Assembly: GCA_017431345.1 (NCBI GenBank)
Contig: JAFRLH010000078.1
Location: forward strand, 19,721 to 83,720
DNA: 64,000 nucleotides
Origin: Lachnospiraceae bacterium
GTDB taxonomy: Bacteria; Bacillota; Clostridia; Lachnospirales; Lachnospiraceae
Direction: 5' to 3'
The position numbers and the translations under genes were made by a program. The notes under the pieces are model-generated. The model worked only from the letters and a program-made list of their open reading frames with translations, did no database searches and was not told the origin of the DNA. Below are positions 22,129 to 38,791 of the stretch, piece by piece; the stretch's first letter is position 1, and each line of letters starts with the position of its first letter.

Positions 22129-22150
22129 GTATCCGTGGGAGAATAATGAT

Positions 22151-23393: not shown

Positions 23394-23477
23394 AATTGCC
23401 GACTGGATATATAAATCCAGCGGTTTTATTTGAATAAGAAATATTCAAGAATAATAGTGAGAATTCACAAATCAGAC

Positions 23478-23544
23478 CTGCACAATTTGTGCAGATTTTT
23501 TATGCTCCTGAGCTTGACTGCACACAGTGTGCAGGTCGTATAGT
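23478..23544 (+). promoter_or_regulatory. MerR-type promoter with paired operators
   Basis: TTGACT (23514-23519) and TATAGT (23539-23544) are 19 bp apart, the long spacer typical of MerR-controlled promoters. The dyad CTGCAC-N5-GTGCAG (23518-23534) fills the spacer. A second copy with the same arms lies at 23478-23494, 40 bp away centre to centre. That copy is followed by ATTTTTT and may also act as a weak terminator for the sigma-like gene. Confidence 0.8.
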
Positions 23545-23583
23545 GTGATTACACCCGGGGGATACAAGAAAGGAGGATGTCGA

Positions 23584-24759
23584 GTGGAGGAAGACAAAGG
23601 AAAATCTCTTCGTGAGGTATGTGAAATAACAGGAGCCACAAGACGCGGTATACAAAATCTGGAAAAACTTGGGCTCATAGCACCATTATCGACAAGAGGA
23701 GTGAGAAACGCTTGTCAGTATGATGAAGCAACAATAATCAAGTTGCGAGAGATTCTTATATTTCAGGAGTGCGGTTTTTCTATAGCTCAGATTAAAACAA
23801 TACTGGAAAAGACAGAGCGTGAGAAAAGAGCAGCTATCAGGAAAAGTATTAAAAAGCTGGAGGAAAGAAAAGAGCGAATTGAAGAGATGATAGCATTTGC
23901 ATCATCTATATATGAAGGACCCGTTAAGCAGTTATTGTTAGGAAGTATTGAACCAGTCGATATAGGAGAGTTTGCTAAATTAATAAAGGCTGTAAGGACG
24001 GTACTCGAAAATGTGAATACTCCTTCGCCGAAGATCGATAAAAATAGGATAAAAGGACGAGAAAGAGAGATGGAAATTGAAGGCCGCAAAATCGTGCTTT
24101 TATTCTCTGAACTATTCGAGAAGGGAAATGCGTCAGAGGCAGAAGTGGGGGCATTGATAGAAAAAACGAAGAAATATGTTACTGAATATTTCGTTGACTG
24201 TCATGATGTAGATCTGTGGTGGCTCAGTGGAGTGGTCCAAGCGGAAAAAGAGCACGCATGGATTACCAGCATAGTCAGTACGGAATGTGCTGATTATATC
24301 TCGGAACAACTGGCGAATTATAGTGGTTCAATGGAGGACTTGTATAATGCAGTATTTTCAAAAGATTTTTTGGAGGACTTGGAAGTCCAGATAGATGAAA
24401 TTTATAACATCTATCGAGGGGATCAAGATGTGGAATCGGTAGAGGGGGTGATTAATCTACTCAACAATATTGATGTCAACGACGATAGAGTGATTCAGCT
24501 GCTAAAAAATATAGATTATCAGTTTAGCTGTTATTCATCATTTATAAACATCCCTTTATTTTGGAATATTTATATGACTTACAAAGATAATGCCGATATC
24601 GTTCTGAAAGCTGTATGTGATTCTACAGATGAAGATATAGAAGTTGTTCGATCTGACTTGGAAAAACTCAAATTTGAAGAATTAGCTGCTGCAGCAGAAC
24701 GAATAGTTATGGCATACATTGAAAAGAAGGAGGAAGTAACAAATGAAGACAAATGCTGA
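23584..24759 (+). CDS. MerR-family regulator with large C-terminal domain
   Basis: GTG 23584 behind AAAGGAGG gives 391 residues. The first 70 residues form a MerR winged helix: SLREVCEITGATRRGIQNLEKLGLI, then REILIFQECGFSIAQIKTIL. A long coiled-coil helix (REKRAAIRKSIKKLEERKER) follows, as in MerR dimers. The remaining 270 residues are an acidic helical effector domain without a recognised ligand motif. The typical 19-bp promoter spacer and two matching dyads just upstream indicate autoregulation. It overlaps the next gene by 17 bases, so that membrane-anchored protein is probably under the same control. Confidence 0.8.
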   Translation: MEEDKGKSLREVCEITGATRRGIQNLEKLGLIAPLSTRGVRNACQYDEATIIKLREILIFQECGFSIAQIKTILEKTEREKRAAIRKSIKKLEERKERIEEMIAFASSIYEGPVKQLLLGSIEPVDIGEFAKLIKAVRTVLENVNTPSPKIDKNRIKGREREMEIEGRKIVLLFSELFEKGNASEAEVGALIEKTKKYVTEYFVDCHDVDLWWLSGVVQAEKEHAWITSIVSTECADYISEQLANYSGSMEDLYNAVFSKDFLEDLEVQIDEIYNIYRGDQDVESVEGVINLLNNIDVNDDRVIQLLKNIDYQFSCYSSFINIPLFWNIYMTYKDNADIVLKAVCDSTDEDIEVVRSDLEKLKFEELAAAAERIVMAYIEKKEEVTNEDKC

Positions 24760-25156
24760 AAAGAAAGAGATTGTTCTTGATAATAATACAATGTCACCGG
24801 TTAATGCCGAAGAATCTTATTCGGAGTATATTATTCCTAATGTAGCCAACGCTGGCAAAATAGCCAGTACCAGCATTGAGGGCATTAAAAATGCCGAACA
24901 AGGCGCAAGAGAGGTGGCATTGAAGGCAAATGAAACAATTGCTGATGCAAACAGAGTGTTTGAAAAGCAGCTGGAAAATCCGAATATTTCTGATGAAGTA
25001 CGTATCAACACAAATGCGGCTATATTAGAGAACTCGAGGATTGCCAAAGAAAATGCGGATGAGCAAAGGAACTTTGCTACAAATCTTGTTGTGATGGTGT
25101 TGTGTTTCGCCGGGGCTTTACTCGGTATTCATCTTGAAAAAAAGAACATGGAATAG
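24743..25156 (+). CDS. Hypothetical tail-anchored membrane protein
   Basis: The 137-residue protein has an Ala/Asn-rich helical body (residues 25-105) that probably forms a coiled coil. A single C-terminal membrane helix (NLVVMVLCFAGALLGIHLE) is followed by a short charged tail. This makes it a tail-anchored inner-membrane protein. ATG 24743 lies within the end of the MerR gene behind GAAGGAGGAAG. It may be the regulated partner of that MerR protein. Family not recognised. Confidence 0.6.
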   Translation: MKTNAEKKEIVLDNNTMSPVNAEESYSEYIIPNVANAGKIASTSIEGIKNAEQGAREVALKANETIADANRVFEKQLENPNISDEVRINTNAAILENSRIAKENADEQRNFATNLVVMVLCFAGALLGIHLEKKNME

Positions 25157-25323
25157 CTCATCATGTCTAAATGTGAACTGTGAAGTCTAGATACTGTTAA
25201 GAGTCAGTGGGATACTGTTCTGCAGGCGTAGTTATACGATGAAATCCATGATAACGGTTTGGTGCTGAGGCAATTGCCTCTGAGTAATCCGCATGGTTGC
25301 GCTGTAGGCAAAAATATGAACAG

Positions 25324-25362
25324 GAAGTCCGAAGCAATTATGCCTCGGACTTCTTTATTTTT
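25324..25362 (+). terminator. Intrinsic terminator after the MerR operon
   Basis: GAAGTCCGA (25324-25332) pairs with TCGGACTTC (25345-25353) around a 12-base loop and is followed by TTTATTTTT. The rest of the 390-bp gap (25157-25545) holds no frame I can support. It contains an AT-rich leader before the resolvase gene. Confidence 0.8.
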
Positions 25363-25476
25363 CTGGCATTCGGCATTATGCACTAATCACTAACCCAAGA
25401 ATTAGATATTATTACAAACTGATTTGACAAAGCTGCCAAATACAGCCCCTAAGGTTCGGCACACGGTTTTGGGTAG

Positions 25477-26199
<723 letters not shown>

Positions 26200-26288
26200 G
26201 ATGCCAAAATGGCATTTCAAGAGATGAAGGATCTTTTGAAAAATCATTTTTGTCAGTTACAAATAAATAATAAAAGAGGTACAGAGTC

Positions 26289-27152
26289 ATGACTATAGAA
26301 CAATACATTCTCATGAGAAAAAAAGAGGACGGCCTAAATGAATATGACCTTTCGAAGCGCAGTGAAAATATACGTATCTGTGTAAACTATATCTTTGAAT
26401 ACTTTGACAATTATCTGGAGAACAGCCCGGATTCTGAGAAGACATTCCTTGAAGAACAGAAACAGGATAAATACAGACAATTAGTATCAGAGTATTCTCC
26501 CGATGTTCAAGATTGGCTTGTTGAGCTTAATTCGAGAACCGGTAAACACGTACACCTGCATCTCAAACGCCTGATAGACGATACATATTTCCTGTTATTT
26601 AATACAGATTCGGAGTTTCGCTCTCTGTCTTATGCAATCTACCCTAAGGCAATAAAAAAAGTCAAAGCATTAGAGGGTGAGGGTGAAATGATTTATAAAT
26701 TCATACGTGACAAGCACAGAATCAGAAGTGAGTTCACGTTGGAGGATCAAAGTATACATATTACCGATAATATTGATCAATGGATATCTAACACATTCAA
26801 AAAGTATGGGGTAAATATCTTTGCATTCTGCAGTGCATGGTGTTCGTATTTCTCATTCACACCCGCTTTATGGGAGAAACAAAGAAAAAAGAGAAATCAC
26901 GAATACGATTCATTACTTGAAGATAAAAGATATGACCTGAGCAGCTATATGTTCTGGGATTATGATTATAAAGCCGACGGAGAGCGCTTTGGCTTAAATA
27001 CTCTATATCGGAATATGCCTAAAAAGGATTTCACGAGAGGAAAAAAACAATACTTTGATGCTGTTATGATGTACTGGTGGACTCATTTTTGTGATAATGA
27101 TGAAAAGGCATGGGAAGAATATCGTGTCCAGCTGGAAGAAAAGAGCTATTAG
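26289..27152 (+). CDS. Hypothetical protein
   Basis: The 287-residue protein starts at ATG 26289 behind AAAAGAGG. It is rich in aromatic and charged residues (FCSAWCSYFSFTPALWEKQRKKRNHEYD, MYWWTHFCDND) and has no membrane helix or recognisable catalytic motif. The N-terminal 60 residues (YDLSKRSENIRICVNYIFEYFDNYL) are helical and resemble the start of other mobile-element-borne hypothetical proteins in general style only. It is followed at 38 bp by the CHAP-like gene, so the two may form an operon. Function unknown. Confidence 0.6.
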   Translation: MTIEQYILMRKKEDGLNEYDLSKRSENIRICVNYIFEYFDNYLENSPDSEKTFLEEQKQDKYRQLVSEYSPDVQDWLVELNSRTGKHVHLHLKRLIDDTYFLLFNTDSEFRSLSYAIYPKAIKKVKALEGEGEMIYKFIRDKHRIRSEFTLEDQSIHITDNIDQWISNTFKKYGVNIFAFCSAWCSYFSFTPALWEKQRKKRNHEYDSLLEDKRYDLSSYMFWDYDYKADGERFGLNTLYRNMPKKDFTRGKKQYFDAVMMYWWTHFCDNDEKAWEEYRVQLEEKSY

Positions 27153-27189
27153 GTATCTGTTAAACAAATCGGAATTTCGTGAGGAGCAT

Positions 27190-27714
27190 ATGAAAAAGGC
27201 AACGAGAGAACATCTGGCCAAAGTTGCGAAGGAAATGGCGCTGGTTCCGTTTCACGGAGCGGTTGATGGACTCGAGTCCAATCTTGCGCCAGTTGTGCGA
27301 CCATTTCCAACGTGGAACATCAGGGAAGCGGACGGGTTATGGTGCGCGGCGTTCGTACTATATTGCTGCAGGGAAGCGGGATTCGAGATTCCGTATAGAC
27401 CCAATGAATGCAAAACCTGTCATCTGGCAGCATGCTTCGGCTGGGAGGAGTTTGCCATCAACGATCATCGGATTGAATACCATAAAGGGACAGAGGCCTT
27501 TGTTCCGAAAGCGGGAGACATCGTCATTTATGACAGAGTTTTTGAGAACAGAGAGCACGACCATATGGGAATTGTTCTTGAGAAACGGGAGCATGCGCTT
27601 CTTGCCGCGGAAGGAAATGTCAACAACATATCCGGAATCATCGAAAGACCAATCGACGAGCATATCCGGGCATATATCCGAATTCCGGATGGATATCAGT
27701 ACAGAGCGAAGTGA
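27190..27714 (+). CDS. CHAP/NlpC-like amidase domain protein
   Basis: ATG 27190 follows GTGAGGAG and gives 174 residues. The sequence WCAAFVLYCCREAGFEIPY carries the expected nucleophilic Cys. PKAGDIVIYDRVFENREHDHMGIVL carries the His of the CHAP (cysteine, histidine-dependent amidohydrolase/peptidase) fold. AAEGNVNN supplies a likely third polar residue. CHAP enzymes cut peptidoglycan amide bonds. No signal peptide is present, so export would need a holin or lysis, or the role is intracellular. It is followed by a bidirectional terminator. Confidence 0.75.
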   Translation: MKKATREHLAKVAKEMALVPFHGAVDGLESNLAPVVRPFPTWNIREADGLWCAAFVLYCCREAGFEIPYRPNECKTCHLAACFGWEEFAINDHRIEYHKGTEAFVPKAGDIVIYDRVFENREHDHMGIVLEKREHALLAAEGNVNNISGIIERPIDEHIRAYIRIPDGYQYRAK

Positions 27715-27904
27715 GAAAATTCAAGTTTGACGAGGAGAAAATGATCATACTGATAAGAGGAGCATCTCACACAAGAAAAACTCTTCTGGCTCAGAAGAGG
27801 CTCGAAAAATGCAAGTAGTGGTATGGTGGTCTCCTGATATCCATGTTACAATCACCATAAAGAAAGAGCGGCCGTGAGCATACTGGTCGTCTCAGTATAT
27901 CAGC

Positions 27905-27944
27905 AAAAAGACAACTTTCCTTGGGATGGGCGGGTTGTCTTTTT
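27905..27944. terminator. Bidirectional intrinsic terminator
   Basis: AAAAAGACAAC (27905-27915) pairs perfectly with GTTGTCTTTTT (27934-27944) around an 18-base loop. With A-runs and T-runs at both sides it serves the CHAP operon on the plus strand and the XRE gene converging on the minus strand. Confidence 0.85.
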
Positions 27945-27949
27945 GGTTT

Positions 27950-28729
27950 TTATGGAAGATAGTCACAGGAGCTCTTTCTTTTAATTTCCAATTCCTTTAT
28001 GGGAATGCACTTAGCTTTAGAGTATTCACCCGTGGGAAGATTGATGAGTTTCCAGATAGCATTGCCTTCTTCATTCGAAGGCTGATCCGCGGTATTGCAA
28101 TTGTCTTTGAAGTTAACAGTATACAAAAGATCATCAGGATGACAGCCCAATGCAGAACATATTTTTAATATATAATCCTTAGAAGGAATAACGTTTTCTT
28201 CTTCCATTCTGCGTACATATCTGCCAGAGCAGCCAATTATTTCTGCCAATTCGTCACCAGTCAGATTTCTTAAACAACGCATATATTGAAGATTGGCGCC
28301 AAAGTAATCCAAACAGTATTCCATTCTCTCACGGGTCACTGCCTGTTTTATCATGCTGGTCATTTTCGGAGTCAGACGGAACAGCAGCCTCTCTCCGGCG
28401 ATCAGGCAGGTAGCAAAGATGGCTTCTTTTTCGTGCCGTCTTCCCTTATCAACTAAAACATTTGTCTTGCTCAGTTCAATAACCACATCTTTAAAATCCG
28501 CATGACTTCCACCGGTAAGCTGCTGAAATATACTGTAGGGGATTTGATTGTGAAACTGCTGACGCATAGACATGGCTATTATCAGATTAAGCACTCGTGA
28601 CGTATCCTGGCTCAGATGTCTGTCATATTCAAAATAAGATAATATGTCATGCTTATCAAAAATGGCGGCTTCTGAAGGAGATATTATTGGCCTGCCTAAG
28701 TTGTAAATAGATATCATGTGTTCCCTCAA
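27950..28729 (-). CDS. XRE-type helix-turn-helix regulator
   Basis: This 259-residue protein on the minus strand carries a central-to-late HTH of the XRE/Cro class at about residues 150-200 (MRCLRNLTGDELAEIIGCSGRYVRRMEEENVIPSKDYILKICSALGCHPDDLL). Before it lies an unfamiliar 140-residue N-terminal domain (LNLIIAMSMRQQFHNQIPYSIFQQLTGGSHADFKDVVIELSKTN) that looks like a winged-helix replication-initiator-like fold. It points away from the transposition genes, and a perfect 23-bp palindrome lies in the divergent gap. It is a candidate master repressor for this half of the element. Confidence 0.7.
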   Translation of the reverse strand: MREHMISIYNLGRPIISPSEAAIFDKHDILSYFEYDRHLSQDTSRVLNLIIAMSMRQQFHNQIPYSIFQQLTGGSHADFKDVVIELSKTNVLVDKGRRHEKEAIFATCLIAGERLLFRLTPKMTSMIKQAVTRERMEYCLDYFGANLQYMRCLRNLTGDELAEIIGCSGRYVRRMEEENVIPSKDYILKICSALGCHPDDLLYTVNFKDNCNTADQPSNEEGNAIWKLINLPTGEYSKAKCIPIKELEIKRKSSCDYLP

Positions 28730-28803
28730 GATGATTAAATAATACGAATCTGAACACCTGGAGATAATACCCCCTCACATTTTATCACCAGTTTACTGTT
28801 TGT

Positions 28804-28837
28804 AATAGGAACTGTCAGTTCCTATTCATTTTTTTTT
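28804..28837 (+). terminator. Perfect palindrome with T-run in the divergent gap
   Basis: AATAGGAACTG (28804-28814) and CAGTTCCTATT (28816-28826) form perfect 11-base arms with one central base, followed by CA and nine Ts (28829-28837). It has the form of an intrinsic terminator on the plus strand with no plus-strand gene before it. It may therefore be an attenuator for the 28964 gene, or an operator for the XRE protein. Confidence 0.6.
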
Positions 28838-28963
28838 ATCAGGGTTATGATAAGAATCCACCATTTAAAACGAGCAGAAACACCACATGAGTTTTTGCAT
28901 GTGCAATGGCCCAGAAGTATTAGACATGGAGCAAAGGGCATATTTGCTGAAGGAGGGATACAA

Positions 28964-29473
28964 ATGCAATACACAAGCGCGACAGCAAACAAACTGCTGA
29001 AGAAGATCACAGCAGAAAGAGATGCACTTCTGAAGAGAGAGCAAAAGCTTTCGATCTTTAACTGCAGTGCCGGGGAAGATGAAGACAAATTACGGCCCGA
29101 ATACGATATGGCTGAATACAAAATGAAGATCAGAACGCTTAACAAGCAGATTATGACAATCAAGCACGCCATCAATCTGGCCAACTGTAACTGCAAGGTA
29201 CCAAATGCAGATGGATTGACAGTGGATCAGCTGTTGATCGTGCTCCCGATGCTTACGGAAGAAGTACGCAGATACTATGATATGGCGCAGCGCCTTCCGC
29301 GTGAGAGGGTATATGACAGATACTCCTCAAGTTCATATGTCGATTATGTGCTTACAAATTATGATCCGGATGATGCCAGAAAGCTGTACGAGGTGGCACG
29401 CGACAAATTGACCAGGTATCAGATTGCTCTGGATGAGGCAAATCACCAGATGATTATCGACATTGATCTGTAA
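28964..29473 (+). CDS. Coiled-coil hypothetical protein
   Basis: ATG 28964 follows AAGGAGGG and yields 169 residues; the frame is open further upstream but has no better start. The first 75 residues form a long amphipathic coiled coil (ATANKLLKKITAERDALLKREQ). TVDQLLIVLPMLTEEVRRYYDMAQRLPRE and a C-terminal helix (KLTRYQIALDEANHQ) follow. The layout resembles DIP1984-type small coiled-coil proteins, but that match is weak. It lies upstream of the transposition region behind a terminator-like palindrome. Function unknown. Confidence 0.55.
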   Translation: MQYTSATANKLLKKITAERDALLKREQKLSIFNCSAGEDEDKLRPEYDMAEYKMKIRTLNKQIMTIKHAINLANCNCKVPNADGLTVDQLLIVLPMLTEEVRRYYDMAQRLPRERVYDRYSSSSYVDYVLTNYDPDDARKLYEVARDKLTRYQIALDEANHQMIIDIDL

Positions 29474-29790
29474 TTATGAATTTCCGCGACAGCAGATCCA
29501 TTAATGCCGAGTCCAGGCTTCTGAGACGTATCTGTATAGTGTTAAAAGCAGTCGTAAACCTGATGTTATTGCATTAGTTGGATAAGGTATATAGCCAAAG
29601 TTAAAGAAACACTTACTGCTGTCAAAAACCGCATGTGATCTTCCAGATTATGTGCAGCCTCCCTGGTTCGGTTTGAAGGAGGCACTTAAAAACGGTGGAG
29701 CAGCGGTTTGCCTCTAAGGCAGATCGTTCGGAAGGATGTCAAAGCAGTACCGGCATCCTTCCGGACATTTCAGAGTGAGGGCCAGGCTCT
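29474..29790. other. Intergenic region with a stable hairpin
   Basis: No frame worth calling lies in these 317 bp. Near its end CGGAAGGATG (29729-29738) pairs perfectly with CATCCTTCCG (29754-29763) around a 15-base loop, 28 bases before the next ATG. No T-run follows, so it is probably an mRNA leader structure and not a terminator. Confidence 0.5.
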
Positions 29791-30699
29791 ATGGATAAGA
29801 CGAACGGGTACATCCTGAAACACTGGTATATCGACAGGAAGCGAAGAGACCTTAAGGATAATCCAAAGGGTTATTCGATTCTTCACGGGAATGTCTTCGG
29901 CAGACCGGGCTGGCCGGATGGAGAACCAATGCATTCTTCTCCGATAGTAAGGTCTAAGATCGAAGAAGACACTCTCATTATATACACAGAAAATTCTACT
30001 TATCGCTGCCTGTTCGAAGACAGCAATCATGAATACATGGACAAAGCCGCTCTGTCTGAATGGATTGAAGAGCCGGTCGATGCTTTTATATCGAGGCTCC
30101 AGCGCCATGTTCAAAGGAAACAAAATCACGACAAGGATCTGATGCTGAGCCTTCTTCCCAAAGACCGGCAGAGCAGCAAAGCCTTTCTTATGAACTTCTC
30201 ACCTGATGCGGAATACTACTTTGTCTCCATGCTTTTAGTAAAGAACGGTAAAGCATATTATTCCGAAGACTACGATGTGCATGTCGGTATGTTTCAGGAT
30301 TCCATTCTTTTAGGGATTGATGAAATGTACGAAGACCAAATCTGGCATGGCTTTGATTTCAGGTATTTCCCATTTGGAGGGAACAGACTGGAGTTCTATG
30401 TATGGGATAAGGAAAAAGAGCCTGTTTTTGTATATAACTCCGGAAAAGAAGGTATAGAAGTAGATTGCCCATACGGCAAGTTTATTGTCCTGCCGGGGGA
30501 GACAGAAGTTCTTGCCAAATATAACACGCAGGCACGGATAGATGATTCGATAGCCCCTTCGATCGACAAACATAACCAGTGGGACGCGAAGGTCTATCCG
30601 AACGGGATGGTGGGATACGGCACACCGAAGGAACTCAGGAAGACACCGGAGAACTTCATGAACCCTCCGGAAGATCCGGACGAGGAAACAGAAGAGTAA
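29791..30699 (+). CDS. Hypothetical protein upstream of the transposition genes
   Basis: The 302-residue protein begins with MDKTNGYILKHWYIDRKRRDL. Around ILHGNVFGRPGWPDGEPMHSSPI and DTLIIYTENSTYRCLFEDS the first 90 residues look like a compact beta domain. The second half is also beta-rich (FPFGGNRLEFYVWDKE), ending in a disordered acidic tail (PPEDPDEETEE). No catalytic or DNA-binding motif is evident. It is the last gene before the duplicated transposition leader and might be a regulator or accessory factor; this is guesswork from position. Confidence 0.55.
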   Translation: MDKTNGYILKHWYIDRKRRDLKDNPKGYSILHGNVFGRPGWPDGEPMHSSPIVRSKIEEDTLIIYTENSTYRCLFEDSNHEYMDKAALSEWIEEPVDAFISRLQRHVQRKQNHDKDLMLSLLPKDRQSSKAFLMNFSPDAEYYFVSMLLVKNGKAYYSEDYDVHVGMFQDSILLGIDEMYEDQIWHGFDFRYFPFGGNRLEFYVWDKEKEPVFVYNSGKEGIEVDCPYGKFIVLPGETEVLAKYNTQARIDDSIAPSIDKHNQWDAKVYPNGMVGYGTPKELRKTPENFMNPPEDPDEETEE

Positions 30700-30790
30700 C
30701 ATCCATCAGTTTATATGCTAAAGCGCAGCTTGGGGGAATAACAGCTATGATGCATATATCGGGGAAAGCAAAAACACTTTAATACAGGTA

Positions 30791-30866
30791 ATCCGGTTCA
30801 GATGAATGGACCGGATCCAATTTCATATGGGAAGCACCCGGGAAGAATCTCCGGGGGCTTCTTTTT
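30791..30866 (+). promoter_or_regulatory. Leader RNA copy 1: hairpin plus terminator
   Basis: Hairpin 1 pairs ATCCGGTTCA (30791-30800) with TGGACCGGAT (30807-30816) around six bases. Hairpin 2 is an intrinsic terminator: GAAGCACCCGG (30831-30841) with CCGGGGGCTTC (30851-30861), then TTTTT. It ends 28 bases before the short TnsB-like gene. A homologous leader stands before tnsA. The layout is that of transcription attenuation. The signal that relieves it is unknown. Confidence 0.75.
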
Positions 30867-30893
30867 CATCTATGAAGAAAGGAGAGAACGGAC

Positions 30894-31487
30894 ATGAAAA
30901 AGAACTGGAGAATAACACTTTTGGAGTATCAGCGTGGAAGAGGACGGAATTATATGTCACCGCTGAGAACAAGCCACGGAAAGTCAAAAATGACAGACCA
31001 TGTGTTCCAGATCGATAAGACCGAGCTCGATTTGTACGTAGTCTCGGAAGAAAATCCTTCGGACGTTTTGGGAAAACCCGTTATATATGCCGTGACAGAT
31101 GTGAGGTCCGGCAAGGTCATAGCCGTAAAGGCGGATATTAAGAATAAGTCATTCGGCGAATTCCGCGATCTTTTCATGACGATTCTTGAGCCTCATAGTA
31201 CACAGGCAGCCATCAGATATGTACGTGGCTTGAAATATGAATCCATTGCACTTGAAGCCGCCTGCAAAGAACTTGGGTTACAGGTTACATACGTCAAAGA
31301 AGTAAGAAGAAGTATGAAAGAACTGGCTCAGGCTTGCCAACACAGTATCGGACAGCGTCTTGTATCAAATGAGGAATATATGAACAGGACTTCCCTTACC
31401 TTAACGGATGTTGCAGATATTCTGACTGAGGCAGCGAATCATTACAACGAGAAGTCCAAAGCGGGGAGAATAAAGCAACAGGCATAA
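30894..31487 (+). CDS. Catalytically dead short TnsB homologue
   Basis: This 197-residue protein aligns by eye with the RNase H-like core of the full TnsB at 33459. FQIDKTELD matches FELDEVELD, GKPVIYAVTDVRSG matches GKPVVYAAVDTKSD, and ALEAACKELGLQV matches ALEAACKELGIQV. The first catalytic Asp is kept (residue 41). The segment holding the second (CDHGSEY in TnsB) is deleted, and the Glu in GLVEACHHS is replaced by Gln in ELAQACQHS. The N-terminal DNA-binding and C-terminal TnsC-contacting parts are missing. The frame is intact with a good ribosome site (AAAGGAGAG) and its own tnsA-type leader. It may bind TnsB or TnsC, or simply be a remnant. Confidence 0.85.
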   Translation: MKKNWRITLLEYQRGRGRNYMSPLRTSHGKSKMTDHVFQIDKTELDLYVVSEENPSDVLGKPVIYAVTDVRSGKVIAVKADIKNKSFGEFRDLFMTILEPHSTQAAIRYVRGLKYESIALEAACKELGLQVTYVKEVRRSMKELAQACQHSIGQRLVSNEEYMNRTSLTLTDVADILTEAANHYNEKSKAGRIKQQA

Positions 31488-31505
31488 AAGCTGCAGGAGA
31501 ACCAT

Positions 31506-32513
31506 ATGATGAATAAGCCGGTAAAAACAATGGTAGTAATACCGGACAAAGCGGATGTACAGGCATCACTTGAAATCCTGAAAGCCGGACATGATAGATA
31601 TTTTTTGTCTTCTGAGATGTCGGATGATGAACTGCTTTCCATGTCCCCCAAAGACTGGTACCGCGTGCTTGATCAGAATGTATACGGACAGGATGAAGCC
31701 AAAAGGAAAGCGTCTCTCATCATGTGGAAGCATCTTCACGGGATACGAAGCACCTCGCTGTTTATCGGCCTATCCGGCTGCGGAAAGACTGAAATATGGC
31801 GGGTTATTAAAAATATCTATACTCCGATCATAATCGCAGATGCCGGAACCATTACAAATGACGGGTGGAGCGGGAGACAAAAGTATTACAGCGCTTTAAA
31901 GGAGATCAGTTTCAGCAGAATCCCAGCCAAATGGTGGATTGTCGTATATGACGAGTTTGATAAATGCGTGCAGCCAAGGTACTCGGCAAGCAGAGAGAAC
32001 GTGTCCTATTCAATTCAGGCGGAGATGCTAAAGGTAATCGAAGGAACAGAGATAAATGTGGCGAAGGCAGATTACGATCCGGAAATCATCGACACTTCGA
32101 AAATATCGTTCGTGTTTCTGGGAGCATTCATATCACTTCTGAAAGAAGAGGATACATCATACGGGTTTAATCCCTGCAGGCAGCAGGCTAAAGACAGAAC
32201 GATAACAATAGAGGATGTTATCACGTTTGGCCTTCGTCCCGAACTGGCAGGCAGGATTGAGAGTATATGTCAGATGAATGAACTCTCAGAAGAAGATCTG
32301 TATGCCATATGCCTGAATCCGTACTACGGACCGGCGGCGAAGCTCAGCCGTCTGTATTCAAGGATAATAACGATGACAAAAGCAACTGCACGGCGTATAT
32401 CTCATGAGGCGGCAAGGTCGGGACTGGGTGCAAGATACCTGTTTTCACTGGCATCGAACATGACGGACGACATCATTTTTGAAGATCCGGATATAAAAAA
32501 GATCATTCTCTAA
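31506..32513 (+). CDS. ClpX-like AAA+ unfoldase encoded by the transposon
   Basis: This 335-residue protein follows the ClpX AAA+ plan. It has Walker A GLSGCGKT (88-95), pore loop GWSG (120-123; ClpX has GYVG), Walker B VVYDEFDK (146-153), QAEMLKVIEGT (171-181), TSKISFVFLGAF, FGLRPELAGR with the arginine finger (R250), and sensor 2 SGLGAR (R310). The ClpX zinc domain is absent, replaced by about 80 unrelated N-terminal residues. The RKH substrate loop is not visible. The ClpP-docking loop is shortened, with YGF (219-221) in place of IGF. It should thus hydrolyse ATP and thread protein, with uncertain ClpP binding. It starts 18 bp after the dead TnsB gene, so the two form an operon. Confidence 0.85.
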   Translation: MMNKPVKTMVVIPDKADVQASLEILKAGHDRYFLSSEMSDDELLSMSPKDWYRVLDQNVYGQDEAKRKASLIMWKHLHGIRSTSLFIGLSGCGKTEIWRVIKNIYTPIIIADAGTITNDGWSGRQKYYSALKEISFSRIPAKWWIVVYDEFDKCVQPRYSASRENVSYSIQAEMLKVIEGTEINVAKADYDPEIIDTSKISFVFLGAFISLLKEEDTSYGFNPCRQQAKDRTITIEDVITFGLRPELAGRIESICQMNELSEEDLYAICLNPYYGPAAKLSRLYSRIITMTKATARRISHEAARSGLGARYLFSLASNMTDDIIFEDPDIKKIIL

Positions 32514-32596
32514 AGAGACAGCACACAGAAACATCAGCGGAGAAGACAGATGAAAGAAATACTGCGGGCAACTCATATTAAATATCAATACATGTA

Positions 32597-32674
32597 ATCC
32601 GGTTCATCTTAGAATGGACCGGATCCAACTTAATGCAGGAAGCACCTGGGGATTCTCTCCAGGTGCTTCTTTCT
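32597..32674 (+). promoter_or_regulatory. Leader RNA copy 2 before tnsA
   Basis: Hairpin 1 pairs ATCCGGTTCA (32597-32606) with TGGACCGGAT (32615-32624) around eight bases. Hairpin 2 pairs GAAGCACCTGG (32639-32649) perfectly with CCAGGTGCTTC (32659-32669), then TTTCT. Compared with copy 1, a C-G pair has become T-A and an A-G mismatch has become A-T, so pairing is conserved. It ends 27 bases before tnsA. Confidence 0.8.
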
Positions 32675-32701
32675 CATCTATGGGGAAGGGGGGAAGCAAC
32701 T

Positions 32702-33475
32702 ATGAGCAAAGAAAACGACCGGATTATACGCCTGATGAAGAGGCGGAAAAGGCAGGTCCTTGAAGGAAGAGGGACAGGCGGCGGACCTGACTATGTACCG
32801 CTTCTGAAGGCCAACGAAGCAAGATCGATCGGTACGGCATGTATGATACAGGACCCCATAGCTTCACGGACTGTACATGTTATGTCGACTGTGGAAAAGG
32901 AGCTTTTCTATCTGCTCAGGTGGAATCAGGAGGTAGAGGATATACGGGAGCAGTATCTGATGGATATGGATAAAGTGAGCATAATAGCTGAAAAGTACGG
33001 GCTGGGTCCGGTCAATAAACGCCTGCCATACACACTTGATTTCCTTGTGACATACCGTGACAAGTCCAGACCGGCGACGGCTTATTCAGTAAAGGCATCA
33101 GAAAAGGTTTTTCGGAAGAACAGCCGTGAGTACAGGGGAAACGAGAAGAAATACAGGAAAATAATGAATCGGATCACGCTTGAGAAGATCTATTGGGAAG
33201 AAGAGGGATGTGAATACAAAGTAATCGTGTCTGAGGACATAAACCATATCCTTGCTTCAAACATAGAACTGGTCATGAACTATTACGACAGGCGCCGGGT
33301 GATAAACACTACACATAAGCTTATCTACCTGATAGCCCACAGATATGTAGACGTACCTTTGGATAAAGAGCGACTGAAACCGAACCGGCTAATATGTGAT
33401 TTTCCCTATTGTGTGGATCAGTTATACGAAGCGGCGACAGCAGAGGAGGATCAACTGTATGGGATGCATTATTGA
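32702..33475 (+). CDS. tnsA: TnsA endonuclease
   Basis: ATG 32702 behind a GGGGAAGGGGGGAA stretch gives 257 residues. TnsA is the restriction-enzyme-like partner of TnsB that cuts the 5' strands at the transposon ends and so makes transposition cut-and-paste. The PD-(D/E)xK-type catalytic set is visible: Glu65 in STVEKELFYLLRW, Asp113 in LPYTLDFLVTY and Lys131 in AYSVKASEK. The N-terminus is very basic. The stop overlaps tnsB by 17 bases. It is the first gene of the operon tnsA-tnsB-tnsC-tniQ-tniQ behind leader copy 2. Confidence 0.92.
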   Translation: MSKENDRIIRLMKRRKRQVLEGRGTGGGPDYVPLLKANEARSIGTACMIQDPIASRTVHVMSTVEKELFYLLRWNQEVEDIREQYLMDMDKVSIIAEKYGLGPVNKRLPYTLDFLVTYRDKSRPATAYSVKASEKVFRKNSREYRGNEKKYRKIMNRITLEKIYWEEEGCEYKVIVSEDINHILASNIELVMNYYDRRRVINTTHKLIYLIAHRYVDVPLDKERLKPNRLICDFPYCVDQLYEAATAEEDQLYGMHY

Positions 33476-35591
33476 CCAAAGCGCGGCAGCAGCAGACATC
33501 AGAAAAGGGGCAGTACTGCAGTCAGGCACTTATAAAAGCAGGGTGTTCTATTGTGACATTGAATGGGTTTTCATGATAGATCTTTCAACCAACCGTATCG
33601 AGAGAACAGGCACATCAGAACTGTTTGAGCGGTTGGATTCAGGAGAATGGGCGGTAATAGAGGGCGAAATATCTTCAAGACCGTATAGTCTGACACAGGA
33701 AGAACAGGAAATAGTTATCAGACGGGAACTCTGTATCCAGGATATGCTGCAGAAAACTTATCCATACTGGGACCGGCTGTTTGTTCCGGGAAAATCCAAA
33801 CCGGCCATAGATGAAGCGGTAAGCAGACTGGGGATATCCAGAAGGCAGACGGGCAGGCTCATTATCAGATACTTCCTCTCTGCCTGTGACCGCACCTCAC
33901 TGCTTGATCAGAGGAAATGGAACAGTCGTACCAGAAGAGCTGCTGCATATGCCAAAGCTAAGGAAATCGCCCCGGAGTCACTGAAAGATGTGGAATATGC
34001 GCTCCGTATTTTCAAGGCGACCAAAAGCGTCCAGAAGGCCTATGACGAAATGATAAAGAAGTACTATTACCGGTATGTTTCGGACGAGAACGGAAACTCC
34101 GTAAAAAGGATCATCGATGAGGCACCGAGTTATTCCCGGGTCTACAGGTACTTAGGCGAAAACCTTGGCGGACTGAGCATAAATGACTATCGGAAAGGAG
34201 AAAGAGACTACTACAACAACAGGCGGCCTTTGCCCGGTAATGCCCAATATGGCATCCCAACCATCGGCAGCACATTTGAGCTTGATGAGGTAGAGCTGGA
34301 CTGCCAGATCGTCTCTGAAAACAGTCCATCCGCGCTCATAGGAAAACCGGTTGTATATGCCGCGGTTGATACCAAGTCTGATATCGTCATGGCAGTCAAA
34401 GTAGGACTTAAGAACAATTCGTACAGCGGATTCTGCGACCTTCTCATGACACTTCTTGAACCTCACAGCGTCCAGGCAAAGACTGTCGGAGCGATGTGTG
34501 ATGATAATTTATATCCGTCTCTTGTTTTGCCTGCGAACATCAGGTGCGACCATGGCTCGGAGTATGAAAGCAAAGCCCTTGAAGCCGCGTGCAAAGAACT
34601 TGGTATTCAGGTCTCTTTCGTCAGAGTGGCGACAGGCAGTATGAAAGGACTGGTAGAGGCGTGTCATCACAGTATTCAGCAGCACCTCAGACACCAGCTA
34701 TCAGATGCAGGCTTCATTAACAAAATACCCGGGGGTAATTCTGAACCGAAAATATATGATGATGCCCGCAAGAAAGCATGCCTTACCCTGTCGGATATTA
34801 CAAAGATCTTTATAGAGGAGGTCTGCTTTTACAACACCGAGCCGCGGGACACTTATGAGCCTGACAAGGAAATGCTTGAAGCAGGGCTGGTCCTGACCCC
34901 TGTGAATATATGGAACTTTGAAAAGAGCCGTTCTCTTGATCCGACCAACATTACGGATGTCAACAGGAGAAGCTGCCTGTTTGCCCTGATGTGCCGTTCC
35001 GGGGATAAAAGGAGATTCACCATATCAAGGAAAGGAATATGTTACAGCGGACATTCGCTGAAATACTTCAGTGACGAGGACTGGTTCCTGGATATGCTAT
35101 CGGCTGACGACAAAAATACTGCGGAAGTCCGGTACATGGATAATACAGTCTCGGCAGTATGGGTGCGCTATCGAAACGAGATTCACAAGGTCGGTCTCTC
35201 AGAAAAGCGTGAACAGAACCTTACACTTGCTGATATGAACTGGGAGGATTATGACAACCTGTACAAGGAACTGATGCAGAAGACCAAAGAGGAAAAAAAG
35301 ATAGTCAAGGGGGCACAGTATGAGCTTGAAGACAGAAACGCACAGACTGTCAGGTACGCCAAAAGTGTTCAAATCGGAGCCAATGAGACCGAGGGTGTAA
35401 GGGCCGCCAGAGCTGAAGAAAGAAGGCGCATTGATCAGGATCCCAATGAAACCCGGAACAGGATGGCTGACCCGGAAAGACCCCGTTTTACAGATACGCC
35501 GCACGAGCCTACCGAGGAAGAACTGCTTATTGCCGAGATTATGGAAATGACTTCGGATGACGAAGCACTGTATGGTTACGGACAGGTATAG
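33459..35591 (+). CDS. tnsB: TnsB DDE transposase
   Basis: ATG 33459 follows GAGGAGGA and gives 710 residues. TnsB binds the end repeats and joins 3' ends to the target. An N-terminal region with helix-turn-helix segments (DEAVSRLGISRRQTGRLIIRYFL) precedes the RNase H-like core. Its catalytic triad is Asp276 (FELDEVELD), Asp364 (RCDHGSEY) and Glu400 (GLVEACHHS), giving the usual D-x35-E spacing. A C-terminal Mu-transposase-like beta domain follows (VRYMDNTVSAVWVRY). The charged tail (ANETEGVRAARAEERRRID) fits the TnsC-contacting region known for Tn7. It is intact and, with tnsA, should support non-replicative transposition. Confidence 0.95.
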   Translation: MGCIIDQSAAAADIRKGAVLQSGTYKSRVFYCDIEWVFMIDLSTNRIERTGTSELFERLDSGEWAVIEGEISSRPYSLTQEEQEIVIRRELCIQDMLQKTYPYWDRLFVPGKSKPAIDEAVSRLGISRRQTGRLIIRYFLSACDRTSLLDQRKWNSRTRRAAAYAKAKEIAPESLKDVEYALRIFKATKSVQKAYDEMIKKYYYRYVSDENGNSVKRIIDEAPSYSRVYRYLGENLGGLSINDYRKGERDYYNNRRPLPGNAQYGIPTIGSTFELDEVELDCQIVSENSPSALIGKPVVYAAVDTKSDIVMAVKVGLKNNSYSGFCDLLMTLLEPHSVQAKTVGAMCDDNLYPSLVLPANIRCDHGSEYESKALEAACKELGIQVSFVRVATGSMKGLVEACHHSIQQHLRHQLSDAGFINKIPGGNSEPKIYDDARKKACLTLSDITKIFIEEVCFYNTEPRDTYEPDKEMLEAGLVLTPVNIWNFEKSRSLDPTNITDVNRRSCLFALMCRSGDKRRFTISRKGICYSGHSLKYFSDEDWFLDMLSADDKNTAEVRYMDNTVSAVWVRYRNEIHKVGLSEKREQNLTLADMNWEDYDNLYKELMQKTKEEKKIVKGAQYELEDRNAQTVRYAKSVQIGANETEGVRAARAEERRRIDQDPNETRNRMADPERPRFTDTPHEPTEEELLIAEIMEMTSDDEALYGYGQV

Positions 35592-35603
35592 GGGAGGTAA
35601 GAA

Positions 35604-37133
35604 ATGGATAAGATCAATTTTGAATTACAGTTCAGGGAGCTTAAAGAGCACGAAAACCTTTATGATCTGGCGGAGATTTCTTCCAGGTCGATTATCCCGG
35701 CTGAGTACATCAGAAGAAGCGGGTATGAAGACAACCCGGATGTATGCGCCATACCGAAATGTCCCGAAGCGCAGGACTTATGGAAGATGAACACAATTCC
35801 GCTGCCGGGCTATGACAGTGAGAAAGCAAGAAACATGTCGAAGGGCGAGGCCCTGGAGCAGATATATGATATAAGGCATGTTACCTGCCCGCTCGGACTG
35901 CATCTGGAGCTGTCGACCGTTATCAACCGCATGCTTCTGGAGTCATACAAGGGAAGGGAGACGAGACTGTCCCAAATGGAGGCGGATGACGGCACACCTT
36001 TCTCAAAAGGCAAACAGATCCTGTCGATGAGGAAAAAAGAAGGGGCAAGACCGGACGGCTGGCTTATGACCGGCGCTACCGGATGCGGGAAATCCGTTGC
36101 ACTATCCTTATGCAGCGCGATCTATCCGGAAGCGATCCTCCATACATTTGAGGATTATCAGTACGTGCAGATACCGATCATACGGGTGACGGCGCTGATG
36201 GGAAGCCTGTCGGATATTTACAGGTCTTTCGGCACCAGGATCGACGAAATACTTGACTGCGGGTCATACCATGAATCACTTGTCCGCTCAGCCAGCCTTA
36301 CAAAAGCCGCAGGATATGTAAAGAGCTGGATCAAAAGGTACCACATCGGAATGATGATTATCGACGAGGTACAGTTCATACACTTCGGAAGCGGCAAAAC
36401 CAGCTTTGAAAACATCGTCGGGATTACCGAAGAAACGGGAATGTCGTTCGGCCTCATCGGGAATCCGGAAGTCTTATCCGGCATATCGACACTCCCGAGA
36501 ATACAGAGCAGGGTGGTGAACGGATGCATCAACGCCAACGCGGCATCTAAAGAAGACCGCAGGTTCTTCATGATTGCAGCCAGGTATCTGTGGAAATACC
36601 AGTGGTGCAGGCGCAGTTTCCCCATGACGGATGAAGTCATGAAAGCTCTATTGTTTGAGTCGGCTTATAACATAGCGATTCTGAAAGCCCTGATTGCGGC
36701 AGTGCAGGTGGAACTGGTTAATAAACCGGACAGCGAGTACAGCGAGGATCTCGTGCATGAAACGGCAGGCGAGGAATTCAGAGTGCTCAGGGAACTCGTA
36801 CTGGACGGCTCAGTGGAGAATGACAGGATATTTGCCGAGAAGCTGGACCAGAGATACAAGGATATAAAGGACAGCGCGGGAAATGAGATCGGTGCCGTGA
36901 AGGCAAACATTCTTGACCAGATAGAAAAGAATGAGCGGGATCAGGTAATTCAGCAGAAAAAGGAAGAGGCCAGACGTGCACTCATGACACTCTATGACGG
37001 GATCTATTCGGAGTCTGAAATCAGCAGGGCAATCACCAATGCGATGTATAAGGACACCTGGCTTTCCGAATCATCATCAGGCGATATCGCACGTTCTGCA
37101 AAGGCATTTCTGGATAAAAACAGGAAGAAATAA
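35604..37133 (+). CDS. tnsC: TnsC AAA+ target-selection ATPase
   Basis: The 509-residue protein starts at ATG 35604 behind GGGGAGGTAAG. It shows Walker A TGATGCGKS (about 155-163) and Walker B MMIIDEVQFIHFG (about 250-262), followed by MSFGLIGNPE (sensor 1 region). TnsC joins the target-binding TniQ/TnsD protein to the TnsAB transposase and forms ATP-dependent rings or filaments on DNA. The C-terminal part (RRALMTLYDGIYSESEISRAI) is helical, as in other TnsC. It stands 12 bp after tnsB and 20 bp before the first tniQ gene. Confidence 0.93.
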   Translation: MDKINFELQFRELKEHENLYDLAEISSRSIIPAEYIRRSGYEDNPDVCAIPKCPEAQDLWKMNTIPLPGYDSEKARNMSKGEALEQIYDIRHVTCPLGLHLELSTVINRMLLESYKGRETRLSQMEADDGTPFSKGKQILSMRKKEGARPDGWLMTGATGCGKSVALSLCSAIYPEAILHTFEDYQYVQIPIIRVTALMGSLSDIYRSFGTRIDEILDCGSYHESLVRSASLTKAAGYVKSWIKRYHIGMMIIDEVQFIHFGSGKTSFENIVGITEETGMSFGLIGNPEVLSGISTLPRIQSRVVNGCINANAASKEDRRFFMIAARYLWKYQWCRRSFPMTDEVMKALLFESAYNIAILKALIAAVQVELVNKPDSEYSEDLVHETAGEEFRVLRELVLDGSVENDRIFAEKLDQRYKDIKDSAGNEIGAVKANILDQIEKNERDQVIQQKKEEARRALMTLYDGIYSESEISRAITNAMYKDTWLSESSSGDIARSAKAFLDKNRKK

Positions 37134-37153
37134 GAAAGAGGTCTGATCCGTAT

Positions 37154-38791
37154 ATGATTCCCATACTTTCAAAACCTTATCCCGATGAGTACTGGTACGG
37201 ATATATCAGCCGGATGGCTTTACTGAACGGGTTTAAGTCTGTCAGGGAATTCGAGGAACTGTGCATTCTGCTGCGCGACTCCCACCGCTGCATCAGGATG
37301 ATATCCGACCTGACCCGGATCTGTGACAGGTTTAAGGGCGCAGTCTTTCCTGATGTAAAGCGGGCCGTGGAAATGACGACTTACTATGACGGAATCGACA
37401 GGGAAACACCGGCAGAACAGGCATTTTTATCGGAGCATATTCTTTTTGACCTTGGGCACGGCACGGGAGCCGAATCGAAAAGCATCAGGTATTGCCCCGA
37501 GTGCATAAAGGCGGATCGGGAAAAGTACGGGGAATCATATATTCATGTAACGCACCAGCTAAGGGGTGTGCAGGTATGTCCGGTACACAGGTGCAGGCTT
37601 AAGAAACTTGCCGTGGATATCTACGATAGGAATATGAAACCCGCAAAGGAACAGGAACCGGAGGAAGATATCGGCAGGCTGGCAGGTGAAGCGGAAGAGG
37701 CAGTGCAGTCCTTTTACCGCAATATGCACAGCGGCATCCTGAAGAAGTATGTGTGCCCTGTCTGCGGCAGGCGCTACCTTGCACACCCCGTATCTGCACA
37801 TACCGGACTTCCATGTCCGTTCTGCAGCGGCAGGATGAGCCTTTCCGAGCTTTTGAGAAGCCGCCTTCAGTACCTGTACGGGGGAGAATACGTACTCTGC
37901 CGGGACGGAGGAGAGAATCTGGGTAAGTACCGGGCAAAGCACATCCTGTGCGGGAGTGTAAAGAAAGATGTCAGGAAGCTGATCTGGGAATATCCCGTGA
38001 CAGCATGTTCCGAATGCAGGAAGATGACCGCAAAGAAACTGCAGGCAAGAATCAACCACACAAGGAATGACATTTCAGTCCTGGAGGTAAACCGGAAGGA
38101 AGGAAAAGTCATGAGTGCCGAAATAGAGCATATCCCATGCGGAAGGCACTTCAGGGTATTCAAAGGCGAGCTTCCGGAATGGACCTGTCCGTACTGCAGC
38201 GGCAGAGAGTTTGATATCCATGATCTGTCAGAAGGCTACGACATCATTTCACCGCTCCGAAATAACCATCAGGGTGTTATGTTCAGGCACAACGGCTGCG
38301 GATGTGTGTTTATAACAAGTAAGACAAGCTTCATAAACGGCAGCAGGTGTCCCGTATGCAGCCCGAGGTACTCATACGGAGAAATCGAAGACATGGTAAA
38401 AGAGTGTGCCGGAGAGTACACGGTTAAGCAGCATATTGCCAGAGGAAAGGTGATGCTGTATTACAGGGGATTCCTGCTGGGCGTATATGATTACAGGGCG
38501 GTTGCCGCAGACCTTGAATCCGCGAATCCGAGGATCATTATTCACAGAAACAGGCAGTTTCAGCCCCCTGTCACGAAGAAGCGGATCATTTATCAGACAA
38601 TCCGGGATAAGGCCGAAGAAAGCGGAAGCTGGGGCTTTAGTGACGGAATCCCCGGAGTTGAGATGACAAGAATCACAAGAAACATGATAAGAAAGATGAC
38701 CGTTGCCGGACTGCTTGTACGGACAGAAAGGGGCAGGTATAAAGTAAATGTTCCCGATGATTCCAATTACGGAAAGAATTATAGAAGATGA
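37154..38791 (+). CDS. tniQ: TnsD/TniQ-family target selector 1
   Basis: This 545-residue protein has the TniQ N-terminus LSKPYPDEYWYGYISRMALLNG and the zinc module RYCPECIKAD...VQVCPVHRCRLKKL (CPxC...C..H). Two further cysteine pairs (YVCPVCGRRYL and LPCPFCSGRM) suggest a TnsD-like arrangement of several zinc fingers, and the C-terminus has a winged-helix-like end (TRITRNMIRKMTVAGLLV). TnsD proteins bind a fixed DNA sequence inside a conserved gene and recruit TnsC there. It is a candidate for the protein that recognises yifB. The next gene overlaps its 3' end by up to 44 bases. Confidence 0.88.
   Translation: MIPILSKPYPDEYWYGYISRMALLNGFKSVREFEELCILLRDSHRCIRMISDLTRICDRFKGAVFPDVKRAVEMTTYYDGIDRETPAEQAFLSEHILFDLGHGTGAESKSIRYCPECIKADREKYGESYIHVTHQLRGVQVCPVHRCRLKKLAVDIYDRNMKPAKEQEPEEDIGRLAGEAEEAVQSFYRNMHSGILKKYVCPVCGRRYLAHPVSAHTGLPCPFCSGRMSLSELLRSRLQYLYGGEYVLCRDGGENLGKYRAKHILCGSVKKDVRKLIWEYPVTACSECRKMTAKKLQARINHTRNDISVLEVNRKEGKVMSAEIEHIPCGRHFRVFKGELPEWTCPYCSGREFDIHDLSEGYDIISPLRNNHQGVMFRHNGCGCVFITSKTSFINGSRCPVCSPRYSYGEIEDMVKECAGEYTVKQHIARGKVMLYYRGFLLGVYDYRAVAADLESANPRIIIHRNRQFQPPVTKKRIIYQTIRDKAEESGSWGFSDGIPGVEMTRITRNMIRKMTVAGLLVRTERGRYKVNVPDDSNYGKNYRR

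What the first reader, a model, noticed from the sequence alone, without database searches (positions are those of the whole stretch)
30783..32513. Dead TnsB fragment plus ClpX-like unfoldase as an on-board transpososome control module
Seen: directly upstream of tnsA stands a two-gene unit. Its first gene is a TnsB core that keeps Asp41 but has deleted the second catalytic Asp segment and changed the catalytic Glu to Gln. Its second gene is a ClpX-like AAA+ protein with intact Walker A, Walker B, pore loop, arginine finger and sensor 2. Both genes are open, and the unit has its own copy of the tnsA leader. Known: host ClpX disassembles the Mu transpososome, and bacterial ClpX stimulates a type I-F CRISPR-associated Tn7-like system in human cells. 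Inference: the element supplies its own remodeler, with the dead TnsB acting as adaptor, decoy or dominant-negative regulator. I know of no described Tn7-like element with this pair.
Basis: partly seen in the sequence, partly recalled or inferred. Interest (0 to 1): 0.95.

Follow-up and report, generated by a model that had tools for sequence, protein, structure and literature searches.

The report
Transposon with its own ClpX-like unfoldase
A 40-kilobase jumping element in a goat-gut bacterium carries, just before its own transposase genes, a dead piece of that transposase and a protein-unfolding motor like the one that host cells use to take transposition machines apart; the pair is real and looks maintained, but it has been seen only once, so what it does is still a guess.

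Summary
The two genes are real, open and sit in a 40,356-bp Tn7-like element in comM with matching ends and a GAGCA target duplication (goat-jejunum Lachnospiraceae MAG). P0001 (197 aa) is the RNase H core of the element's TnsB: first catalytic Asp kept, second changed to Val with 19 residues missing before it, Glu changed to Gln, outer domains absent. P0002 (335 aa) is a ClpX-type AAA+ protein. It keeps 29 of 31 columns invariant in 14 ClpX/HslU-type rows but lacks the zinc domain and RKH loop and has GWSG for GYVG. Pair and tnsA each stand behind a copy of one two-hairpin leader with a compensatory change. Simple neutral decay would leave P0001 open with probability about 0.002-0.09. Against: none of 95 TnsA/TnsB loci (78 distinct, mostly 1.5-kb flanks) has a clear ClpX homologue, the pair is a singleton, P0001 changes several-fold faster than TnsB, no promoter was found, and no structure could be predicted. 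Best reading: an accessory operon that remodels TnsB complexes, moderate confidence.

The parts
13972..54327 (.). Whole Tn7-like element, 40,356 bp, inserted in comM/yifB; left end TGATTTTTAGCAGTTAATTATGTC, right end read inwards TGTTATTTTTCAGTTGATCATGTC
   Evidence: G+C 0.428 inside, 0.55 outside
13967..13971 (.). Target-site duplication, left copy GAGCA
54328..54332 (.). Target-site duplication, right copy GAGCA
13985..14155 (+). Left-end array of 8 sites like TTAATCATGTCAGAA (0-3 mismatches), mostly 23 bp apart; taken as TnsB sites
   Evidence: binding is inference
54242..54323 (-). Right-end pair of 26-nt repeats (92% identical), inverted relative to the left end; only 9-10 of 15 bases match the left motif
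   Evidence: binding is inference
30781..30882 (+). Leader copy 1: hairpin (6-nt loop), then terminator-like hairpin and U tract, in front of the short TnsB
   Evidence: (z -4.0)
30894..31487 (+). P0001, short TnsB: RNase H core only, D41 kept, V110 and Q146 in place of catalytic Asp and Glu
31506..32513 (+). P0002, ClpX-family AAA+ protein without zinc-binding domain
32587..32690 (+). Leader copy 2, in front of tnsA: same two hairpins, 8-nt first loop, one compensatory change in the second hairpin
   Evidence: (z -4.8)
32702..33475 (+). tnsA (257 aa)
   Evidence: Tn7_TnsA-like_N 1.6e-13
33459..35591 (+). tnsB, full length (710 aa), D276/D364/E400 present
   Evidence: Tn7 TnsB 7pik 2.5e-12
35604..37133 (+). 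tnsC (AAA_22; TniB just below cut-off)
37154..38791 (+). tniQ/tnsD 1
   Evidence: TniQ 2.3e-16
38748..40589 (+). tniQ/tnsD 2, with C-terminal repeats
   Evidence: TniQ 2.6e-4, below cut-off
12795..13971 (+). 5' part of the split comM (target gene), including the left GAGCA
54328..54745 (+). 3' part of the split comM, including the right GAGCA
   Evidence: joined flanks give one 529-codon open frame

Best explanation
The unit is an accessory operon of an intact Tn7-like transposon. The start of the tns operon (leader plus the catalytic core of tnsB) was duplicated and a ClpX-type AAA+ gene was captured behind it. It is read together with tnsABC because it stands behind a copy of the same attenuator-like leader. 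P0002 most likely assembles like ClpX into an ATP-driven unfoldase whose substrate grips have been rebuilt; it acts on TnsB-containing complexes, most likely pulling TnsB off the joined ends after strand transfer (as host ClpX does for MuA) or clearing excess transposase. P0001 is a non-catalytic TnsB core that helps P0002 find TnsB, as adaptor or bait. Shown: intact element ends, duplicated leader and tnsB core, catalytic losses, kept ATPase motifs, open frames. Supported but not proven: that P0001 is under selection. Inferred: recent mobility, co-expression, ATPase and unfoldase activity, TnsB as substrate, the adaptor role.
For: Element with matching ends and identical 5-bp duplications. 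The unit lies directly upstream of tnsA on the same strand. Both leaders fold better than every one of 200 shuffles (z -4.0 and -4.8); the arms of hairpin 1 are identical although its loop went from 6 to 8 nt, and hairpin 2 shows a C-G to U-A double change (my reading). P0002 keeps 29 of 31 columns identical in 14 other ClpX/HslU-type rows but 45 of 69 of those identical in 11 canonical rows; the lost ones include the pore-1 Tyr, pore-2 residues and the RKH Lys (loop names recalled): a conserved engine with changed substrate contacts. For P0001, dN/dS to TnsB is about 0.3, and explaining its excess change by neutral decay needs 0.14-0.42 substitutions per site, at which a simple simulation keeps the frame open with P 0.002-0.09. 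Literature: ClpX disassembles MuA complexes (PMC5357137, passages); ClpX raised wild-type PseCAST integration about 4-fold in human cells, is hypothesised to disassemble the post-transposition complex, and a clpX deletion cut propagation of the selection phage about 200-fold (PMC12326709, passages).
Against: Singleton: 0 of 95 TnsA/TnsB loci (78 distinct) has a clear ClpX homologue and no second TnsB core was seen. P0001 has lost family-conserved residues much faster than TnsB (keeps 19 of 48 columns, 6 in gaps, against 39 of 48; also 14 of 32 in another alignment, 7 in gaps), and its 19-residue gap may damage the fold. The consensus scan found no promoter-like site in front of either leader, and terminator-like sites at a chance number (2 against 1.6 expected), leader 2 not among them. 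The host genome has three other ClpX-type genes. A genome-wide screen did not pick ClpX for a CAST in E. coli, though its authors allow redundancy (PMC12757027, passages). No structure or complex model could be run. Nothing links P0002 to TnsB beyond gene order and the shared leader. The only sequence is one MAG.
Confidence: 0.42

Rival explanations
1. Decay and coincidence: P0001 is a leftover of a partial tns duplication (or of another element's tnsB) that is slowly dying, and P0002 is an unrelated ClpX-like cargo gene that happens to lie next to it.
For: Only one occurrence; P0001 is accelerated (19 of 48 conserved columns against 39 of 48) and has lost the outer TnsB domains and two catalytic residues; divergent ClpX-like genes exist elsewhere in the family with no tns gene in the held 15 kb and 3.7 kb (L058, L060). 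In the settings kindest to decay the open frame still has P 0.05-0.09.
Against: In most settings tried the neutral change that decay would need leaves the frame open with P 0.03 or less, frameshifts not counted; the reading frame agrees with that of TnsB from end to end in the alignment; sequences like ribosome-binding sites precede both genes (by eye).
Confidence: 0.3
2. Competition or defence module: the dead TnsB core senses transposases of rival Tn7-like or Mu-like elements and the unfoldase dismantles them, protecting the occupied chromosome.
For: The element carries restriction-modification-like cargo; P0002 weakly matches the DolB ATPase of a defence system (2.2e-9, 35 bits).
Against: The unit sits at the tns operon behind the tns leader, not with that cargo; ClpX models fit P0002 far better than DolB (8.3e-32); P0001 gave no PADLOC match.
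Confidence: 0.13
3. Proteolytic limiter: P0002 docks on host ClpP and degrades TnsB (or P0001 as an autoregulated partner), keeping transposase low.
For: The Gly-Phe of the ClpP-docking IGF loop is kept (YGF here; role of the loop recalled).
Against: The stretch that holds the loop is 14 residues shorter than in E. coli ClpX and the first residue of the tripeptide is Tyr; ClpP binding cannot be tested here.
Confidence: 0.1

Closest known systems
Tn7-like transposons inserted in comM (Tn6022)
   Same: TnsA, TnsB, TnsC, TniQ and insertion into comM (PMC10293859, passages)
   Different: Tn6022 also encodes TnsF (an inactivated tyrosine recombinase) and TnsE; among the 24 element proteins that I scanned with Pfam none matched a tyrosine recombinase (smaller ORFs were not scanned). 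I saw no ClpX-type gene described for such elements in my paper searches
Host ClpX acting on the Mu transpososome
   Same: Same AAA+ family and the same kind of proposed substrate, a DDE transposase
   Different: There ClpX is a host protein (PMC5357137, passages); with a zinc-binding domain and no dead transposase involved (recalled)
ClpX stimulation of type I-F CASTs
   Same: ClpX-type unfoldase helps a Tn7-like transposase and is hypothesised to act on the post-transposition complex (PMC12326709, passages)
   Different: ClpX is supplied by host or experimenter, not encoded in the element
Truncated or inactive transposases as regulators, such as Tn5 Inh (recalled)
   Same: A shortened, inactive relative of the transposase encoded by the element
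   Different: Tn5 Inh is made from the transposase gene itself and keeps most of the protein (recalled); P0001 is a separate gene with only the catalytic-core region
Divergent ClpX-like paralogues of Lachnospiraceae (L058, L060)
   Same: DEFDK Walker B and altered pore loops; grouped with P0002 in the tree at 93/95, with a long-branch warning
   Different: No tns genes in the held 15 kb and 3.7 kb

Membership tests
Tn7-like transposon | TnsA, TnsB, TnsC and TniQ genes in a row | tested here: met
   (TnsC by AAA_22, TniB just below its cut-off; second TniQ below cut-off; TnsB by its match to 7pik)
Tn7-like transposon | Ends with repeated transposase-type sites, inverted, and a 5-bp target duplication | tested here: met
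   the right-end sites match the left motif weakly (9-10 of 15)
Tn7-like transposon | Insertion at a fixed chromosomal site | tested here: inconclusive
   Lies in comM; one copy known, so fixedness is not shown
ClpX (P0002) | Walker A, Walker B, arginine finger, sensor 2 | tested here: met
   29 of 31 columns identical in 14 other rows are kept
ClpX (P0002) | NCBIfam equivalog cut-off | tested here: not met
   110.5 bits against 359 (PRK05342) and 90.4 against 370.75 (TIGR00382)
ClpX (P0002) | N-terminal zinc-binding domain | tested here: not met
   four-Cys pattern absent
ClpX (P0002) | GYVG pore loop and RKH loop | tested here: not met
   GWSG; RKH region missing
ClpX (P0002) | IGF loop for ClpP docking | tested here: inconclusive
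   YGF in a shortened stretch
ClpX (P0002) | Hexamer, ATPase and unfoldase activity | not testable with these tools
   needs biochemistry; structure prediction did not run
Active TnsB transposase (P0001) | DDE triad | tested here: not met
   D41 kept, V110, Q146
Active TnsB transposase (P0001) | DNA-binding and C-terminal domains | tested here: not met
   aligns only to TnsB 239-463 of 710
Dodola defence system | DolB ATPase with DolA partner | tested here: inconclusive
   DolB 35 bits only; P0001 no match; ten proteins of the element scanned

The most novel reading that the evidence does not exclude
A cut-and-paste transposon has internalised the post-transposition disassembly step: it encodes a dedicated ClpX-type unfoldase together with a catalytically dead copy of its transposase core that serves as the unfoldase's adaptor to the transpososome, and switches both on with the transposase through a duplicated RNA leader.
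Probability: 0.25. Interest if true: 0.87.

Novelty: new variant of a known kind. Interest (0 to 1): 0.62.

Why it matters
How Tn7-like transposases leave their product is an open and practical question: ClpX has been added to make a CRISPR-associated transposase work better in human cells, at the price of toxicity (PMC12326709, passages). A natural element that carries its own ClpX-type protein and a possible adaptor would be a ready test of whether disassembly limits transposition, and perhaps a less toxic helper. It would also be a case of a dead transposase kept as partner of a remodeller.

Tried and rejected
Second Asp deleted: rejected, it is substituted (V110) with a deletion just before.

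P0002 as an ordinary gene of the genus: rejected. In the 11 genus genomes, apart from two contig-edge fragments (in G009 and G001) that I did not resolve, the only other strongly diverged ClpX-like gene is in G008 (L060, itself in the search profile).

A wider conserved pair: P0002 in viral contigs, none; in plasmids and phages, 70 and 49 records, all below 60% identity, of which I saw the 30 and 20 rows listed and did not check neighbours beyond one phage stretch; TnsB profile A1 in viral contigs, none; ClpX-like profile A2 in viral contigs, 287 relatives of which the best 80 were kept, none with a tns gene by tblastn; TnsA alone in viral contigs, none; TnsB in the GTDB collection, 8 loci besides the window's own; TnsA in family, order, class and phylum samples. 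No second pair. TnsB on plasmids gave 530 records, all below 60% identity; I looked at the surroundings of one, which has no ClpX annotated in 13.7 kb.

The one marginal ClpX match, L116 (E 0.0083), is a short P-loop protein, not ClpX. L239 with two TnsB pieces reads as one tnsB interrupted by a shift (or sequence error), not a second copy.

Leader as a known RNA: no Rfam match at gathering scores. Leader as a transposase site: the four best matches to the left-end motif listed for 30600-32710 (11 and 10 of 15) lie outside both leaders, and none there is within 3 mismatches. Similar leader in relatives: I saw none by eye upstream of tnsA in 8 loci. The tree of ClpX-like proteins cannot place P0002 (branch 5.3, long-branch warning).

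Full report
WHAT IS THERE. The window matches JAFRIW010000056.1 (Lachnospiraceae bacterium RGIG2510, a MAG from goat jejunum) base for base over the 21,545 bases compared; I take that record as the same genome, not a second witness. It holds a Tn7-like element of 40,356 bp in comM. The outer bases are TGATTTTTAGCAGTTAATTATGTC on the left and, read inwards, TGTTATTTTTCAGTTGATCATGTC on the right, flanked by GAGCA on both sides; the two flanks joined in a script give one 529-codon comM frame (Mg_chelatase and its C-terminal domain). Eight sites like TTAATCATGTCAGAA stand at the left end. The right end has a pair of 26-nt repeats that match the left motif only at 9-10 of 15 bases. The element is poorer in G+C than its flanks (0.428 against 0.55). 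Core genes: TnsA, TnsB, TnsC and two TniQ-type proteins. TnsB aligns to Tn7 TnsB (7pik, 2.5e-12), and D276, D364 and E400 fall on Asp, Asp and Glu (catalytic role recalled).

THE PAIR. P0001 (30894-31487) aligns to TnsB 239-463 only. The first catalytic Asp is kept (D41), the second is Val (V110) and the Glu is Gln (Q146). Nineteen residues before the second position are missing; the full TnsB and the 14 other TnsB rows have them. Of 48 columns in which at least 7 of 8 other TnsBs agree, full TnsB keeps 39 and P0001 keeps 19, with 6 in gaps. P0002 (31506-32513) is a ClpX-type AAA+ protein, 27-30% identical to the relatives that BLAST listed and 35% to the best match outside its own genome in 98 genomes. 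Of 31 columns identical in 14 other ClpX/HslU-type rows it keeps 29; of 69 columns identical in the 11 canonical rows it keeps 45, and those lost include the pore-1 Tyr (Trp here), pore-2 positions and the Lys of the RKH loop (loop names recalled). It lacks the zinc-binding pattern and scores far below the ClpX equivalog cut-off. So the engine is preserved and the substrate-handling parts are not.

THE LEADER. The 5' regions of P0001 and tnsA share about 100 nt at about 80% identity. Each folds into two hairpins, the second followed by U residues; energies are -41.2 and -49.4 kcal/mol, z -4.0 and -4.8, with none of 200 shuffles as good in either case. The arms of hairpin 1 are identical while the loop differs by two bases, which suits an RNA hairpin better than a DNA palindrome with fixed spacing. 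In hairpin 2 one C-G pair is U-A in the other copy and an A-G mismatch is an A-U pair (my reading). The same control therefore probably serves both units. Against this, the consensus scan of 30500-33000 found no promoter-like site in front of either leader and two terminator-like sites where 1.6 are expected by chance, one of them hairpin 2 of leader 1, none in leader 2. No Rfam family matches at gathering scores, and by eye I saw no similar leader in 8 relatives.

SELECTION. Between P0001 and TnsB, dN is 0.44-0.49 and dS 1.3-1.7 over 192 codons (dS near saturation, ends of the alignment uncertain). About 84% of the asymmetric losses fall on P0001 (258 of 308 summed over 8 non-independent comparisons), giving dN/dS of about 0.35-0.6 on its branch and 0.05-0.2 on that of TnsB. 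If all the excess were neutral decay, 0.14-0.42 substitutions per site would be needed, and the frame would stay open with probability 0.002-0.09 in a simple model without indels. This disfavours plain decay but does not exclude it.

DISTRIBUTION. TnsA relatives occur in 6 of 397 family genomes and 14 of 392 order genomes, own genome included; the TnsA N-terminal family in 27 of 391 class genomes (25 over its cut-off) and 23 of 388 phylum genomes (20 over it), own included. TnsB relatives: 9 loci in the GTDB collection, one of them the window itself. I checked 95 such loci (78 distinct; the window's own copies left out) for ClpX with an HMM and for P0002 with tblastn. None has a clear homologue; the one marginal match, L116 at E 0.0083, is a different P-loop protein. 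Limits: 78 of the 95 hold only up to 1.5 kb on either side of the match, the other 17 more; some are cut by contig ends; and 70 of 95 show a TnsB core in the held stretch (53 of 66; 17 of 29), so some may not be Tn7-like elements. No locus of the first set has two TnsB cores; the one double hit of the second set, L239, is an interrupted single gene. Of 11 genus genomes only the window's own has the TnsB, but most of the others are incomplete. Of 287 ClpX-like relatives in viral contigs the best 80 were kept, and none holds tns genes by tblastn.

MECHANISM. Host ClpX strips MuA from its product (PMC5357137, passages). For type I-F CASTs ClpX is hypothesised to disassemble the post-transposition complex and matters in some settings (PMC12326709, passages) but was not picked in an E. 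coli screen (PMC12757027, passages). A Tn7-like element that carries a ClpX-type protein next to a dead copy of its transposase core suggests the same step done in-house: P0002 as remodeller, P0001 as adaptor or bait. P0001 lacks the DNA-binding part and the C-terminal tail, so a simple competitor for ends or for TnsC is less likely than a partner that works through the catalytic-core fold. This step is inference.

NOVELTY. My eight searches of the open-access library (listings, and passages of six papers) showed no Tn7-like element with a ClpX-type gene or a separate dead TnsB core. The survey of 6,549 Tn7-like elements (PMC8649781) has no word beginning with Clp, chaperone or unfoldase in its main text as held. 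Papers outside that library and supplements were not searched.

VERDICT. A real, unusual and probably maintained accessory pair in an apparently intact Tn7-like element; function inferred; one occurrence.

Noticed in passing
window 42929-50215, with 41189-42877 and 51255-53432: Cargo: an NRPS with two condensation, two adenylation and two carrier domains and a terminal reductase-type domain, a separate AMP-ligase and an M13 peptidase.
   Followed up: partly
window 14667-21407: Cargo on the left: WYL regulator, T5orf172-type protein, Eco57I-type methylase and a ResIII helicase with similarity to separate parts of a type IIG restriction enzyme.
   Followed up: partly
window 38748-40589: The second TniQ-type protein has a C-terminal tail of about four 60-residue repeats with FEDGTVV-like motifs (by eye), perhaps a target-reading part.
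   Followed up: no
window 13972-54327: The tns genes lie in the middle of the element instead of next to an end, and the ends are lopsided: 8 sites left, 2 right, plus a separate 22-bp AT-rich array at 54069-54178.
   Followed up: partly
L058:3101-11374 (G014:C9): A Lachnospiraceae genome with three neighbouring ClpX-like genes, two of them with DEFDK Walker B and odd pore loops; function unknown.
   Followed up: partly
L043, about 300 nt upstream of tnsA: In a relative the sequence before tnsA holds repeats like ACAGTCAATGA, perhaps transposase sites of a nearby element end (by eye).
   Followed up: no
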